From positions 496,001 to 560,000 of the forward strand of contig NZ_PYYB01000002.1 of the NCBI RefSeq assembly GCF_003044185.1: DNA of 64,000 nt, read 5' to 3'. Below, piece after piece: positions 12,789 to 17,515 of this stretch. Each line of letters begins with the position of its first letter. Positions within the stretch are counted from its first letter, which is position 1. The position numbers and the translations under genes were made by a program. Below the pieces are notes generated by a model. The model was given only the letters and a program-made list of their open reading frames with translations, was not told where the DNA came from and did no database searches. Origin of the DNA: Paraconexibacter algicola (GTDB lineage: Bacteria > Actinomycetota > Thermoleophilia > Solirubrobacterales > Solirubrobacteraceae).

Positions 12789-13667
12789 TCAGCCGAAGCC
12801 GAACGACGTCCGCAGCCGGACGATCCCCTCGACGAGCCCGACGACGCGCCGGACGTCCTCGACGGTCTCCTCGTCCAGCCCGCCCTCCAGGGCGCGGTTG
12901 GCGGCGGCGCCGACGGCGCGGCGCTCCGCCCGCAGCGCCTCGAGCCGGTCGGCGATCTGGGCCCGGTCGGCCCACGGGGCCAGCTCGGCGATCGCCGCCT
13001 CCAGCGCGACGCGCAGCTGCAGGGCCGCCTCGCGCGTGCGGTCCCCGTCGAGGTCCAGCCGGGCGCGCAGGATCAGCTCCTCGCACGCCAGGGCGACGTC
13101 CCGCCCGCCCAGCAGCGCCGCGAGACGCTCCTGCGGACGCAGCGCCGCCTCGCGACCGGTCTGCCGCCGGCGCGCCTGCGGCGGCAGCTCGACCGCCTCC
13201 GCCCAACGGCTGTGCGCGAGCTGCTCGCCCTCCCCGGTGCCGACGCGGACGACCAGCGCCTGCGGACGCGAGACCTCGCGGACCGTCGGATCCGCCGTCG
13301 CGGTGCGGTGCAGGTGCAGCATCCGGTTGAGGACCCGGATCGCCTCGGCGGCCTCCTCCTCGCCGTCGACCTCACGGCGCCAGCGGGCGGCATCGTCCAG
13401 CGACGGGAACGGCTTCGGGCCGACGACCGTCACGCGGCTCACGGGCACCGGCGTGGCGGGCGGCTCGGACGGCACGTCCCTCGCCCGCCGGTTGCGGACC
13501 AGGCCGCGACGCTCGGGAGCCCCGAGCGTCTGGAGCACGACGACCTGGTCGACCTCACCGGCGTGGCCACGGACGACGTAGCGCCCCTCCTCCGGCCCGA
13601 GCTCCCAGGGGAACTCGAGCTGGACGAACTTGAAGTGCGGCAGCGGCGCGCCGGCCGGCTCGGACAC
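12789..13667 (-). CDS. Conserved-looking hypothetical protein, 292 aa
   Basis: No known family was recognised. The N-terminal third has beta-strand segments (HFKFVQLEFPWELGPEEGRYVV, VDQVVVLQTLG) resembling a small beta barrel. The rest is helical and charged (EEEAAEAIRVLNRMLHLH, RLEALRAERRAVGAA), with a long region of Arg/Glu heptads. There is no signal peptide. The GTG start shares one base with the TAG stop of the murein hydrolase gene just upstream, so the two are co-transcribed; it may be an accessory or regulator of that enzyme, which is inference from position only. Confidence 0.6.
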   Translation of the reverse strand: MSEPAGAPLPHFKFVQLEFPWELGPEEGRYVVRGHAGEVDQVVVLQTLGAPERRGLVRNRRARDVPSEPPATPVPVSRVTVVGPKPFPSLDDAARWRREVDGEEEAAEAIRVLNRMLHLHRTATADPTVREVSRPQALVVRVGTGEGEQLAHSRWAEAVELPPQARRRQTGREAALRPQERLAALLGGRDVALACEELILRARLDLDGDRTREAALQLRVALEAAIAELAPWADRAQIADRLEALRAERRAVGAAANRALEGGLDEETVEDVRRVVGLVEGIVRLRTSFGFG

Positions 13668-16126
13668 TACTTCCCGCGTCGTGCGCTGTTCGCGCGCTCC
13701 GCGGCGGTCGGCACGTCCTTGCCCGCGGGGATCGCGTACTTCGACGGCTCCGTCGCGACGGTCGGGTTGTCGATGTTGCCGATCCGGTCGATGAGCTTCA
13801 TCCACTGCGACGGCTTGAGCGTGCTGTTCAGCTGCTTGGCGAGCTTGCCGTTCTCGCTGTAGAGCGGGCTGAAGCCGACGTGGATGTGGTCCGCGTGGTC
13901 GGGCAGCGCGATCGTGTTGTCCGCGCCGTCGAAGGTCATCAGGCTGATGATCTGGTTCGGCCGCATCGTGCCCTGGAGCGTGAGCAGCCGGCGGATCGTC
14001 AGCTCCGTGACCGAGCCCGCGCCCTGGTTGCCGATGATCGGGATGCCGTTGATCTTCGCGATGTCGAGCGCCGACCCGGACGGGTGGGCCGACAGGTTGC
14101 CCGAGGCCGTGAAGATCGACGAGCGGCCGCAGCGCAGCGACGTGACCGTCGGCTTCAGACCGGACGCCGAGAGGAACGCCATCGTCGCGAGCACGCGGCG
14201 GTCGACGAGGCCCGCCTTGATGTCACGACGGCCGCACTCGTAGATCTCGATGCGCGGGTCGTCCAGGACGCTCTTCTGCAGCGCCTCCTTGGACATCAGG
14301 AGGATCTGGCCGATCGTCGGGTTCTTCGAGTCGGGGCCGAAGAACGGGTTCTTGCCGGCGGCGCGGTAGACCGCGGTCGACTCGAGCAGCTTCCAGCCGT
14401 CGAGGATCGGCTTCGGGTCGATGCGCGGCGCGCCGCGCCCGGCCGGGCGGATCTCGAACTTCACGTGCGAGGCCGTGCGCGAGGTGCCCTTGCCGATGCG
14501 GCCGAGGACGGTGCCCGCGATGACCTTCGAGCCGACCTTGAGGTCCTTGAGGACGACGTCGTCCTTCTTCAGGCCGTAGACGTCGGTGAAGTACGTGTCG
14601 AAGGTCGACGAGTCGGTGAGGGCCTCGCCCTGGTCGGCGACCTGCTTGTCGCCCCCGGCCTCGTAGGCCTGCGGACGCGCGGGGTTCGCGAACAGGCGCT
14701 CCTTGCCGGCCTTGACCGAGTCGGTCGCGGTCTTGGCGACCCGCTCGACGACCTCGGCGGCCTTCTGCGTCCCGGCGGACGCGGGAGCCTTCGGCGCCTT
14801 GTCCTTCGGGAGCTCGAGCTCCTTGGCGACGGCGGACTCGGAGACGCTCGCGGCCTTCGGCACCGGGTGCTTGCGCGCGACGCTGCCGAGCTCCGCGTAC
14901 GTGTACGTGTTGCCGTAGGCGTCCTCGAGCTGGAGGAAGCGGCCGAGCCGCTTGCTCTTGCCGATCTTCACGATCTTGCCGTCCTGGACGGCGATGACCG
15001 AGCTGCCGGCCTTCGCGAAGATGTCGATGCCGCGACGGGCGGTCGACTCGACGACGTTCGCGGCGTTCTGGCCCTTGGCGACGCGCTTGACCGCATCGGC
15101 CTCGGAGAGGTCGTCGGCGTAGGTGGCCTTCGCGTGGACCGGGAACTGGCCCTGGGTCAGGCCGGTCAGCGAGCCGACGAGGTCGGCGGGCAGGCCGCCG
15201 ATCAGCCGGGCGCGCATGAGCACGCTGTCGACGTACCAGTCGGCGTGGTTGTAGGCGAAGATCGCCTTGCGGATGTCCTCGTCGGCGCCGGCGGCCTTGA
15301 GGTACCGGGCGGCGGCGAAGATCGCGTCGACCGGGTTGTACGGGTCCTTCTTGCCGTCGCGGTTGGCGTCGACGCCGTAGGCCTTCCACGAGGACGGGAT
15401 GAACTGCATCCAGCCCAGCGCGCCCGCGGAGGACACGTTGAGGTTGCGGCCGTAGTCGGTCTCGATCTCGTTGATCGCCGCGAGGATCTCCCAGCGCACC
15501 CCGTACTCGATCCCGGCCGCCTGGTAGATCGGCAGCAGGAACGGCGGGATCCGGAACTTCTCGATGAAGAAGTTGGGGACGCCGATCGGCGCGACGCCGG
15601 GCAGCGACATCGCGAAGCCCGGGTTGACCTCGGTCGGCGACCCGTCGCTGTTGCGCAGCTTCGTGGCCTGCCGGCGCTCGGCCGCGTCCTTCTTGGCGGC
15701 GGCGAGCTGCTCGGCGGCCTGCTGGACGGCCTTCGTGCTCTTCGACGGGGTGCGGGTCTTCGTGCCCGAGGTCTCCTGCTCGGCGGAGCCGGCCTCCTGC
15801 ACGACCTGCGGGGCACCCTCGATCGTCGTGACCTCGCCACCCGGAGCGGGCTCGGGGGTTGGCGCCGGCGTCGCGGTCGGCGACGGGGCGGCCGGCGTCC
15901 CGCCGACCTCCTGGATGCCGAGGATGGGCAGCTCGATCCCGGGGATCTTGATCTGGCCCACCGGCGTGCCGGGAGGCACGTCCAGCGTGACCGTGATCAC
16001 CGCGCCTCCGAGCAGGGTGACCTGGAATGTCCGAGGGTCCGCGCTCGCCGAGCCGACGGTCGAGCCGAAGCCCGCCGCGACGACGCCAGCAGAAGTGAGA
16101 CCCAGAAGCAGCTTGCGCTTGTTCAT
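13667..16126 (-). CDS. Secreted multidomain murein hydrolase (transglycosylase, M23-like, M15-like)
   Basis: The 819-aa protein has a signal peptide (1-29, cut near SASAD) and a Pro/Thr-rich linker. Next is a lytic transglycosylase domain (about 195-315) with catalytic Glu 222 in EIETDYG and the family motifs GALGWMQFIPSSW and AYNHADWY. An M23/LytM-like domain (about 360-560) follows, then a C-terminal M15-like carboxypeptidase domain with SAHPSGSALD (679-688) and DHADHIHVGF (743-752). In the M23-like domain two of three zinc ligands are changed: HxGxD reads RRGID (Arg 364) and HLH reads HVK (Lys 556), so it is probably a non-catalytic binding domain. It is expected to cut glycan strands and peptide stems outside the membrane. 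Confidence 0.88.
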   Translation of the reverse strand: MNKRKLLLGLTSAGVVAAGFGSTVGSASADPRTFQVTLLGGAVITVTLDVPPGTPVGQIKIPGIELPILGIQEVGGTPAAPSPTATPAPTPEPAPGGEVTTIEGAPQVVQEAGSAEQETSGTKTRTPSKSTKAVQQAAEQLAAAKKDAAERRQATKLRNSDGSPTEVNPGFAMSLPGVAPIGVPNFFIEKFRIPPFLLPIYQAAGIEYGVRWEILAAINEIETDYGRNLNVSSAGALGWMQFIPSSWKAYGVDANRDGKKDPYNPVDAIFAAARYLKAAGADEDIRKAIFAYNHADWYVDSVLMRARLIGGLPADLVGSLTGLTQGQFPVHAKATYADDLSEADAVKRVAKGQNAANVVESTARRGIDIFAKAGSSVIAVQDGKIVKIGKSKRLGRFLQLEDAYGNTYTYAELGSVARKHPVPKAASVSESAVAKELELPKDKAPKAPASAGTQKAAEVVERVAKTATDSVKAGKERLFANPARPQAYEAGGDKQVADQGEALTDSSTFDTYFTDVYGLKKDDVVLKDLKVGSKVIAGTVLGRIGKGTSRTASHVKFEIRPAGRGAPRIDPKPILDGWKLLESTAVYRAAGKNPFFGPDSKNPTIGQILLMSKEALQKSVLDDPRIEIYECGRRDIKAGLVDRRVLATMAFLSASGLKPTVTSLRCGRSSIFTASGNLSAHPSGSALDIAKINGIPIIGNQGAGSVTELTIRRLLTLQGTMRPNQIISLMTFDGADNTIALPDHADHIHVGFSPLYSENGKLAKQLNSTLKPSQWMKLIDRIGNIDNPTVATEPSKYAIPAGKDVPTAAERANSARRGK

Positions 16127-16385: not shown

Positions 16386-16769
16386 ATGAGCGAGCACCCG
16401 TCCGACGACCGCGACGACGTCCCGCGCAAGGGCGAGGACCCGCTCGGGCGGATCGCCCAGGAGCTGCTCGGCAGCCCGCTGGTCAGCGGCGCGCTCTCGC
16501 GCGCCTTCGAGGCCCGCGAGCGCGCGGTGCACGCGCAGGAGGCGGCGATGGGCGCGCTGAACATCCCGTCCGCCGCCGACGTCGACCGGCTGTCACGCCG
16601 GGTGCGGTCGCTGTCCCAGCGGCTGGAGGGCATCGAGGACGGCGTCGACCGGCTCGACGACCGGCTCGCCGCGCTCCAGGGGACGGCCGACCTCGACGCG
16701 CGCCTCACCCGCATGGAGGCGACGCTCGAGGAGCTGCTGCGGCGCCTGCCGCCCCCCGCGACGGACTAG
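16386..16769 (+). CDS. Phasin-like coiled-coil protein, 127 aa
   Basis: The protein has an acidic start and a helix with GRIAQELLGSPLVSGALSRAFEAR. NIPSAADVDRLSRRVRSLSQ follows, then a coiled coil with regular Leu/Ile heptads. This matches the actinobacterial phasin/PHA-granule-associated pattern, where N(I/V)PS(A/K)ADV introduces the coiled coil. No Lys-rich tail is present, unlike the protein at 10460. The ATG is preceded by both TACGCT and a GGAGG. It overlaps the sirtuin gene end to end by 4 bp. Confidence 0.7.
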   Translation: MSEHPSDDRDDVPRKGEDPLGRIAQELLGSPLVSGALSRAFEARERAVHAQEAAMGALNIPSAADVDRLSRRVRSLSQRLEGIEDGVDRLDDRLAALQGTADLDARLTRMEATLEELLRRLPPPATD

Positions 16770-17515
16770 GCGATCCCGAGCGCGGCCACGACCGCCTCGA
16801 GCTCGGCGACCACGTCGCCGTCGAGCTTCAGCGCCGCCCGGCCGTCCCAGGGCGTCGGGCCCTGCGTCACCACCACGACGGTGCCGCCCGCCGCCTGGGT
16901 GACGCCGGGCAGCTGCGCGACCGGGTGGACCTCCAGCGACGTGCCGATGCACAGCAGCACGTCCGCCCCCGCCGCCAGCGACGCCGCCCGCTCGAGCGCG
17001 CCCTCCGGCAGGAACTCGCCGAAGAGCACGACGTCCGGCTTCAGCGGGCGGCCGCAGTCGCAGCCGGGCACGCCGTCCGCGGCGGCCGCGAGTCGCTCGC
17101 GCACGACGTCGACCGGGTAGCGGCGCAGGCACGACAGGCACGAGGAGTGCTCGATCGTCCCGTGGACCTCGACCAGCTCGGCCGTGCCCGCGCGCCGGTG
17201 CAGCATGTCGATGTTCTGCGTGACGACGGCGTCGAGATGGCCCGCCCGCTCGAGCGCCACCAGTGCCCGGTGGGCGCCGTTGGGCTGCTTCTCGCGCAGG
17301 GTCGTGAAGCGGTCCCCGTAGAAGTGCCAGAACCGCGCGGGGTCGGCGCGCCACGCGTCGATGTGCGCGACCTCCATCGGGTCGACGTTCTCCCACAGCC
17401 CCGTCCCGGGGGAGCGGAAGTCCGGGATGCCCGACGGGACGGAGATCCCCGCGCCCGTGAGCGCGACGACGGAGCCGGCCCCGCGGACGAGGTCGGCGAG
17501 CGCGGCGGCGCTCAC
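16766..17515 (-). CDS. cobB: NAD-dependent protein deacylase (sirtuin)
   Basis: Sirtuins remove acetyl or acyl groups from lysines using NAD. The 249-aa protein has the NAD-binding GAGISVPSGIPDFRS near residue 20, TQNIDMLH, the catalytic His in EVHGT, four zinc Cys residues (SSCLSC and GCDC) and the GTSLEVHP segment. These support an active class III-like bacterial sirtuin. It starts with GTG, 25 nt after the PadR gene, and may be co-transcribed with it. Confidence 0.95.
   Translation of the reverse strand: MSAAALADLVRGAGSVVALTGAGISVPSGIPDFRSPGTGLWENVDPMEVAHIDAWRADPARFWHFYGDRFTTLREKQPNGAHRALVALERAGHLDAVVTQNIDMLHRRAGTAELVEVHGTIEHSSCLSCLRRYPVDVVRERLAAAADGVPGCDCGRPLKPDVVLFGEFLPEGALERAASLAAGADVLLCIGTSLEVHPVAQLPGVTQAAGGTVVVVTQGPTPWDGRAALKLDGDVVAELEAVVAALGIA

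What the first reader, a model, noticed from the sequence alone, without database searches (positions are those of the whole stretch)
13667..16126. Three-domain murein enzyme with an inactivated M23 domain between two active ones
A lytic transglycosylase (Glu 222) and an M15-like carboxypeptidase (His 681, Asp 688, HxH near 747) flank an M23/LytM-like domain whose zinc ligands are changed (His to Arg 364, His to Lys 556). Degenerate LytM domains elsewhere activate amidases or bind peptidoglycan. Here the domain may position the two active domains on glycan and stem peptide, making a processive cell-wall cutter.
Basis: partly seen in the sequence, partly recalled or inferred. Interest (0 to 1): 0.55.

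Follow-up and report, generated by a model that had tools for sequence, protein, structure and literature searches.

The report
Two-enzyme wall cutter with dead LytM
This looks like a secreted bacterial protein that joins a glycan-cutting enzyme and a peptide-cutting enzyme to a worn-out, zinc-less peptidase domain; its sampled relatives keep that dead domain well preserved, so it probably still serves as a binding or control part.

Summary
The gene is on the minus strand (13667-16126, 819 aa) and every residue number given is right. Anatomy: signal peptide, lytic transglycosylase (Glu222), LytM/M23 fold without its zinc site, LAS-fold metallopeptidase. In 108 distinct three-domain homologues the transglycosylase Glu is kept in 108, the M23 zinc triad in 0 and the LAS triad in 89. 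None has His at 364 (82 have Arg), so most simply the M23 site was lost before these lineages split. The dead domain is nevertheless about as conserved as the LAS domain.

Two corrections. The C-terminal domain is not a recognisable M15 carboxypeptidase: its predicted fold and HxDHxH motif match LAS endopeptidases such as VldE and MepA. And 'two active domains' is not general: LAS is dead in 19 of 108, and some paralogues lack the M23 domain.

New features: an insert splitting the LytM domain carries a conserved motif (ERLFANPxRP), and Arg364 is kept almost only where LAS is intact. An EnvC-type amidase partner is unlikely: Amidase_3 was not found in 49 of 61 genomes, this one included. I read it as a bifunctional hydrolase with a cis-acting dead LytM docking domain. 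Processivity is untested.

The parts
13667..16126 (-). whole gene, 819 aa, three-domain peptidoglycan hydrolase
16040..16126 (-). probable Sec signal peptide, aa 1-29 (K/R-rich start, hydrophobic core, ASA-DP)
   Evidence: read by eye; no predictor run
15902..16039 (-). small N-terminal beta module, aa 30-75, no named family
   Evidence: mean pLDDT 86-92 in the blocks of aa 31-70, three strands; no Pfam hit
15137..15577 (-). lytic transglycosylase domain, aa 184-330, catalytic Glu222
   Evidence: Pfam SLT_2/SLT; E222 108 of 108; VIA Z 12.2, rmsd 3.2, 127 aligned to E. coli Slt35 1d0k
14867..15094 (-). LytM/M23 first half, aa 345-420, zinc His replaced by Arg364
14561..14866 (-). insert splitting the LytM domain, aa 421-522, mostly variable
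   Evidence: mean pairwise identity 0.23 outside the motif
14639..14704 (-). conserved motif inside the insert, aa 475-496 (KERLFANPxRPxAxxxGGxxQ)
   Evidence: mean pairwise identity 0.56 against 0.23 on either side; A480 and P482 58 of 58; short pattern in 98 of 108 inserts
14366..14560 (-). LytM/M23 second half, aa 523-587, HxH reduced to H554-V-K556
13859..14317 (-). LAS-fold metallopeptidase domain, aa 604-756: H681, D688, H744, D746, H747, H749
   Evidence: AlphaFold2 mean pLDDT 86.8; VIA Z 8.8 MepA, 8.2 VldE; triad 89 of 108

Best explanation
A secreted, two-activity peptidoglycan hydrolase. The N-terminal transglycosylase cuts glycan strands. The C-terminal LAS domain is a zinc endopeptidase that cuts stem peptides, most likely a VldE-like L,D-bond (or MepA-like) cleavage. 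Between them sits a LytM domain that lost its zinc site in a common ancestor and was kept under constraint as a non-catalytic docking domain acting in cis: its dead groove holds a wall peptide, the insert's conserved motif or a neighbouring domain, and so positions or gates the enzyme. Shown here: anatomy, absence of the M23 site in all 108 homologues examined, conservation, predicted LAS fold, conserved catalytic residues. Inferred: the enzyme activities, the cleavage site and the docking role.
For: LT Glu 108/108, M23 zinc triad 0/108, LAS triad 89/108. Mean pairwise identity of the dead M23 halves 0.53 and 0.63, against 0.63 for LAS, 0.79 for LT and 0.13-0.23 in linker stretches. LytM fold with best matches that include the regulators EnvC and DipM. 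DipM's dead LytM domain binds and stimulates the transglycosylase SdpA, and groove mutations abolish binding (PMC10336132, passages). LAS fold and the full residue set H,D,H,D,H,H in 81/108; in VldE, alanine at each equivalent residue abolishes activity (PMC11667670, passages). Of 64 conserved M23 columns, position 364 is the one most tied to an intact LAS site: Arg with LAS intact 81, Arg with LAS dead 1, no Arg with LAS intact 8, no Arg with LAS dead 18. C631 and C666 are both present in 42 and both absent in 16 of 58, as for a disulfide of an exported enzyme.
Against: No activity has been measured. M23-less LT-LAS paralogues exist (L143-L145), so the dead domain is dispensable in some. The Arg364-LAS link rests on about 4 changes of LAS state and 2 starred (4 in all) independent pairs, and two other M23 columns (Y404: 81/4/8/15, G565: 82/5/7/14) show a similar pattern, so it may be a clade effect. 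The insert and the domain arrangement are low-confidence in the model (pTM 0.48). LAS matches have middling Z, and no Foldseek E is below 0.001. Zinc geometry was not checked.
Confidence: 0.55

Rival explanations
1. The dead LytM domain is an EnvC/NlpD-type activator in trans: it recruits and switches on a separate amidase or another autolysin, and the fused enzymes only bring it to the wall.
For: EnvC and DipM LytM domains are among the best structural matches; DipM binds several autolysins (passages).
Against: Amidase_3, the amidase family that EnvC and NlpD activate (recalled), was not found in 49 of 61 genomes searched, the window's own among them; 12 had it, and the control of 14 named genomes rang in 8. 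The window protein itself matches 94 of 101 genomes at E below 1e-50. Other amidase families were not searched.
Confidence: 0.15
2. The M23 domain is a spacer or relic: a foldable module that only sets the distance between the two enzymes and is slowly decaying.
For: Zinc ligands vary freely once the site is lost (position 556 has 16 different residues in 108); some paralogues lack the domain; L176 has a badly eroded one.
Against: Conservation of the dead halves is close to that of the LAS domain and far above the linkers; Arg364 is kept in 82 of 108; the insert motif goes with the domain (98 of 108 inserts; not found in the M23-less L143-L147).
Confidence: 0.2
3. The protein is in effect a transglycosylase, and both LAS-superfamily domains are only cell-wall binding modules.
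For: LT Glu is 108/108 while the LAS site is lost in 19/108, needing at least 2 and most simply 4 changes on the tree.
Against: In 81/108 all six VldE-type catalytic residues are kept, and LAS also occurs on a PcsB-type coiled coil without any transglycosylase detected (L170).
Confidence: 0.1

Closest known systems
DipM of Caulobacter crescentus (degenerate LytM regulator)
   Same: LytM fold without a working zinc site; partner of a lytic transglycosylase (SdpA; passages); VIA Z 15.1, rmsd 2.9, 124 aligned
   Different: DipM is a separate protein with LysM and LytM domains acting in trans; here the dead LytM is fused between two enzymes and split by an insert of about 100 residues
EnvC / NlpD amidase activators
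   Same: catalytically inactive LytM groove (PMC9662197 passage); EnvC Z 15.3, rmsd 3.1, 124 aligned
   Different: Amidase_3 was not found in this genome; here the domain is fused to enzymes
VldE (Spr1875), pneumococcal L,D-endopeptidase
   Same: LAS fold (Z 8.2, rmsd 2.6, 91 aligned); His-x6-Asp and HxDHxH catalytic set
   Different: VldE's domain follows a long disordered linker, with no transglycosylase or M23 domain in the passages seen; no curated Pfam model covers the window's domain
CwlP of the B. subtilis SP-beta prophage (muramidase + M23)
   Same: glycan-cutting domain and M23 domain in one protein (reference title and table entry in PMC9662197)
   Different: CwlP's M23 is listed as an active D,D-endopeptidase; no LAS domain named there
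Csd1-Csd2 of Helicobacter pylori
   Same: a LytM with incomplete metal ligands paired with a zinc-bearing one (abstract)
   Different: two separate proteins forming a heterodimer; no transglycosylase in the abstract

Membership tests
Lytic transglycosylase, SLT_2/MltB-like | Pfam model above its cut-off | tested here: met
   SLT_2 57.7 bits (cut-off 24.3), SLT 40.2 (21.3)
Lytic transglycosylase, SLT_2/MltB-like | catalytic Glu and lysozyme-like fold | tested here: met
   E222 108 of 108; Z 12.2 to Slt35
Active M23/LytM endopeptidase | three zinc ligands H..D..HxH | tested here: not met
   R364, D368, K556 here; triad intact in 0 of 108
Degenerate LytM factor (EnvC/NlpD/DipM) | LytM fold without the full zinc site | tested here: met
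Degenerate LytM factor (EnvC/NlpD/DipM) | Amidase_3 partner encoded in the genome (EnvC/NlpD type) | tested here: not met
   no PF01520 match in G000 (about 96% complete); 12 of 61 genomes have one
Degenerate LytM factor (EnvC/NlpD/DipM) | groove binds and stimulates an autolysin | not testable with these tools
   needs binding and digestion assays
M15 D-Ala-D-Ala carboxypeptidase | Pfam M15 model above cut-off for the window's domain | tested here: not met
   window domain: only Extensin-like_C, E 0.33, 11.6 bits (cut-off 25.4); of 27 members scanned 9 hit Peptidase_M15_4 (best E 0.0033) and 16 Extensin-like_C (best E 0.0008)
LAS metallopeptidase, VldE/MepA-type | LAS fold | tested here: met
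   mean pLDDT 86.8; the first 44 VIA rows are all MepA, VldE, hedgehog, ChiX, Ply500, VanXY and similar folds, Z 8.8 falling to 4.5; best Foldseek E 0.013
LAS metallopeptidase, VldE/MepA-type | zinc residues H..D..HxH and VldE's extra H and D | tested here: met
   H681, D688, H744, D746, H747, H749; this set in 81 of 108; VldE residues
LAS metallopeptidase, VldE/MepA-type | cleaves a stem-peptide bond | not testable with these tools
   needs muropeptide assay

The most novel reading that the evidence does not exclude
A self-regulated bifunctional autolysin. The conserved ERLFANPxRP motif in the loop that splits the dead LytM domain docks into that domain's own groove (at or near Arg364), or into an adjacent active site, as a built-in latch. 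This would be the cis counterpart of EnvC's restraining arm. Release of the latch would couple glycan and peptide cutting by the flanking domains.
Probability: 0.18. Interest if true: 0.65.

Novelty: new variant of a known kind. Interest (0 to 1): 0.42.

Why it matters
Dead LytM domains are known as separate regulators. Here one is fused between two peptidoglycan-cutting domains and is dead in all 108 three-domain homologues examined, next to natural relatives that lack it (LT-LAS) and a distant protein with an intact-looking M23. That set of natural variants gives a ready experiment on what a dead peptidase domain does for an autolysin. The LAS domain is also found in 35 of 296 genomes drawn from the phylum, yet no Pfam or NCBIfam model covers it in the window protein, and Pfam at E 0.01 covers it in none of the seven LAS-bearing proteins scanned.

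Tried and rejected
Phage or plasmid origin: no phage match for the LAS domain at E 0.01. Plasmids gave 6 weak matches: 4 Rhodococcus, and 2 Thermoanaerobacterium annotated as transglycosylases, one of which (L183) lies three genes after a DUF87 gene. IMG/VR gave 6 weak loci, not pursued. Homologues of neighbouring window genes lie within many fetched stretches, which speaks for a chromosomal core locus.

M15 carboxypeptidase: rejected by sequence models. The A3 profile found no true PDB relative (best E 1.3, a sodium channel subunit); only the fold search did. That a family is not listed in the fold search does not exclude it.

Arg364-motif co-loss: the table looks linked (Arg and motif 80, Arg only 2, motif only 18, neither 8), but on starred branches there are only one or two independent pairs, so nothing is claimed.

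Arg364-LAS link: the Fisher p of 2e-13 ignores relatedness; 2 starred pairs (4 on all branches), so it is suggestive only.

Dropped or limited rows: 26 near-duplicates of 134 proteins before the 108-row counts; the three-domain test accepted domain hits up to E 1, and all 134 passed. The 134 are the window protein, L001-L130, L150, L157 and L176. Position 364 is read off a MAFFT alignment that is gappy around 358-370 in divergent rows. In the LAS tree L150 and the LAS-dead rows were left out on purpose and only 39 three-domain proteins were used; long branches (L175, L147) make their places unsure.

Literature: nothing on this architecture was seen in seven searches, judged from titles and starts of abstracts: 20 of 52 papers listed; 8 each; 1; none. 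One search was for CwlP.
Full report
Observation. The ORF at 13667-16126 lies on the minus strand, starts with ATG and encodes 819 aa. Residues E222, R364, D368, H554, K556, H681, D688, H747 and H749 are in the translation, and so is E412, the third change of the M23 site. Pfam gives SLT_2, SLT and a two-part Peptidase_M23, all above cut-off, and nothing for the C-terminal domain. NCBIfam gives six matches to MltB-type, SpoIIQ, EmtA and MepM models, all below their cut-offs.

Distribution. Of 101 genomes (own included), 97 match, 94 of them below 1e-50; four have no match. Several genomes carry more than one copy. The window's genome has a second three-domain protein on another contig (L043) and further proteins with an LT or a LAS domain. 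In a class-wide draw of 199 genomes the matches listed outside the order were partial, to the transglycosylase or to the later part with LAS (not all matches were listed). One three-domain protein (L157, G432) came from a genome coded only 'same phylum' with 3% contamination; I cannot tell transfer from contamination.

Catalytic sites. From three-domain proteins were collected and 26 near-duplicates removed, leaving 108. LT Glu: 108 of 108. M23 zinc triad: 0 of 108; none has His at 364 (82 Arg); 79 keep none of the three ligands, 23 keep one, 6 keep two. LAS triad H681/D688/H749: 89 of 108. The 19 LAS-dead proteins need four changes on a tree of the LT and M23 columns, at least two of them forced by starred branches.

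Constraint. In the 58-row alignment A2 the mean pairwise identity is LT 0.79, M23 halves 0.53 and 0.63, LAS 0.63, N-terminal module 0.24, and linker and insert stretches 0.13 to 0.23; the stretch joining M23 to LAS has 0.55 and the C-terminus 0.48. The dead domain is therefore held about as tightly as the LAS domain. It is split by an insert of roughly 100 residues. Inside that variable insert, aa 475-496 reach 0.56 identity, with A480 and P482 in 58 of 58 rows. A short pattern for the motif core is found in 98 of 108 inserts. A slightly stricter pattern is found in none of 108 over the first 150 residues and beyond residue 430 of the same cores, and in none of the M23-less L143-L147 over their parts after residue 380.

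Structure. AlphaFold2 on A2 gave mean pLDDT 71.3 and pTM 0.48. The M23 halves and LAS are confident (most ten-residue blocks above 90), the transglycosylase is mixed (43-90), and the insert and domain arrangement are not confident. VIA-align: LytM at about residues 325-587, Z 16.8 to StM23 (rmsd 4.8, 132 aligned), 15.3 to EnvC, 15.1 to DipM; LT at 186-315, Z 12.2 to Slt35. The LAS domain alone gave pLDDT 86.8. Its first 44 VIA rows are all LAS-type folds: MepA 8.8, VldE 8.2, sonic hedgehog 7.9, ChiX 7.1, Ply500 6.9, VanXYc 4.6. Foldseek's best E is only 0.013, to MepA. No coordinates were available, so the zinc geometry was not checked.

Which LAS enzyme. In VldE the metal residues are H301, D308 and H375, and alanine at these or at H370, D372 or H373 abolishes activity (passages of PMC11667670). 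The same spacing and the HxDHxH string are present here: H681, D688, H744, D746, H747, H749; all six are kept in 81 of 108. VldE cuts the L-Ala-D-Glu bond in cross-linked peptides. I take this as a lead to the cleavage site, not as proof. M15 models match only weakly. Two cysteines, C631 and C666, the only ones in the window protein, are both present in 42 and both absent in 16 of 58 rows, which points to a disulfide in this domain.

Relatives with other layouts. I fetched 20 loci picked mostly from the class-wide list and 20 picked from the phylum-wide list, so the counts below describe the picks, not frequencies. LT followed by LAS without a detected M23 occurs in the same order (L143-L147; L147 has a second lysozyme-like stretch between, and L146 has one by eye) and in 9 of the 20 phylum-wide picks (L158-L164, L171, L173). 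Of the other 11, eight have LAS without a detected LT, two are three-domain (L157, L176), and L175 is LT-CAP-M23-LAS. In L175 the M23 motif is intact by eye and its Pfam hit is 3.9e-13. LT plus an M23 with intact motif (by eye), without a detected LAS, occurs in the class (L139, L141, L142). Eight loci of other orders (L131-L138) have LAS at the very end of the open frame, after a stretch that looks, by eye, like a worn lysozyme-like domain. In the LAS tree the three-domain proteins group together with M23-less L143-L145 inside them, on branches of 84-91 without a star, which suggests secondary loss of M23; L175 stands apart on a long branch, which suggests a separate origin of its layout.

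Mechanism. The best-supported reading is a bifunctional hydrolase with a cis-acting, non-catalytic LytM domain. DipM is the precedent: its dead LytM domain binds and stimulates a lytic transglycosylase (passages of PMC10336132). The EnvC/NlpD version needs Amidase_3 (recalled), which was not found in 49 of 61 genomes, this one included. A hint that the dead site serves the LAS partner: of 64 well conserved M23 columns, position 364 is the one most associated with an intact LAS site (81/1/8/18), followed by Y404 and G565. The events behind this are few, and the test ignores descent.

Novelty. Every piece is of a known kind. The conserved fusion of a dead LytM between a transglycosylase and a VldE-like LAS domain, with a conserved motif in a LytM-splitting loop, was not seen described in the searches. 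I rate it a new variant of a known kind.

Noticed in passing
window 14639-14704 (-): Conserved motif KERLFANPxRPxAxxxGGxxQ in an otherwise variable loop that splits the LytM domain.
   Followed up: partly
window 14234-14236 and 14129-14131 (-), Cys631 and Cys666: Perfectly covarying cysteine pair in the LAS domain: 42 both, 16 neither, 0 single of 58.
   Followed up: yes
window 12789-13580 (-) and 16389-16769 (+): A gene just downstream on the same strand, without Pfam hit at E 0.01, has homologues within 54 of 80 fetched stretches, and a divergent coiled-coil gene upstream within 55 of 80; Sir2 at 16766-17515 within 40 of 80 (adjacency not checked). Conserved neighbourhood of unknown meaning.
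   Followed up: partly
L149 (G000:C1:2482000-2484200): Another transglycosylase of the window's genome; by eye its C-terminal part also carries a LAS-like His..Asp..HxH set, of a different kind (sequence).
   Followed up: no
L170, L169: Coiled coil fused to the LAS domain in another family of the phylum; in L170 the coiled coil matches Pfam CC_PcsB above cut-off.
   Followed up: no
L131-L138: In other orders of the class the LAS domain ends the protein and follows what looks like a worn lysozyme-like domain, the mirror image of the window protein (by eye).
   Followed up: partly
L175: Four-domain LT-CAP-M23-LAS protein with an intact-looking M23 site.
   Followed up: partly
L073: Record CAMCUD010000003.1 is titled Bifidobacterium breve but holds a Solirubrobacterales-type three-domain protein, probably a mislabelled MAG.
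   Followed up: no
L183 (Thermoanaerobacterium plasmid pMU3262): Transglycosylase with a weak LAS match in the same gene, three genes after a DUF87 gene on a plasmid typed MPF_T, so the pair may also occur in Bacillota, perhaps for conjugation.
   Followed up: no
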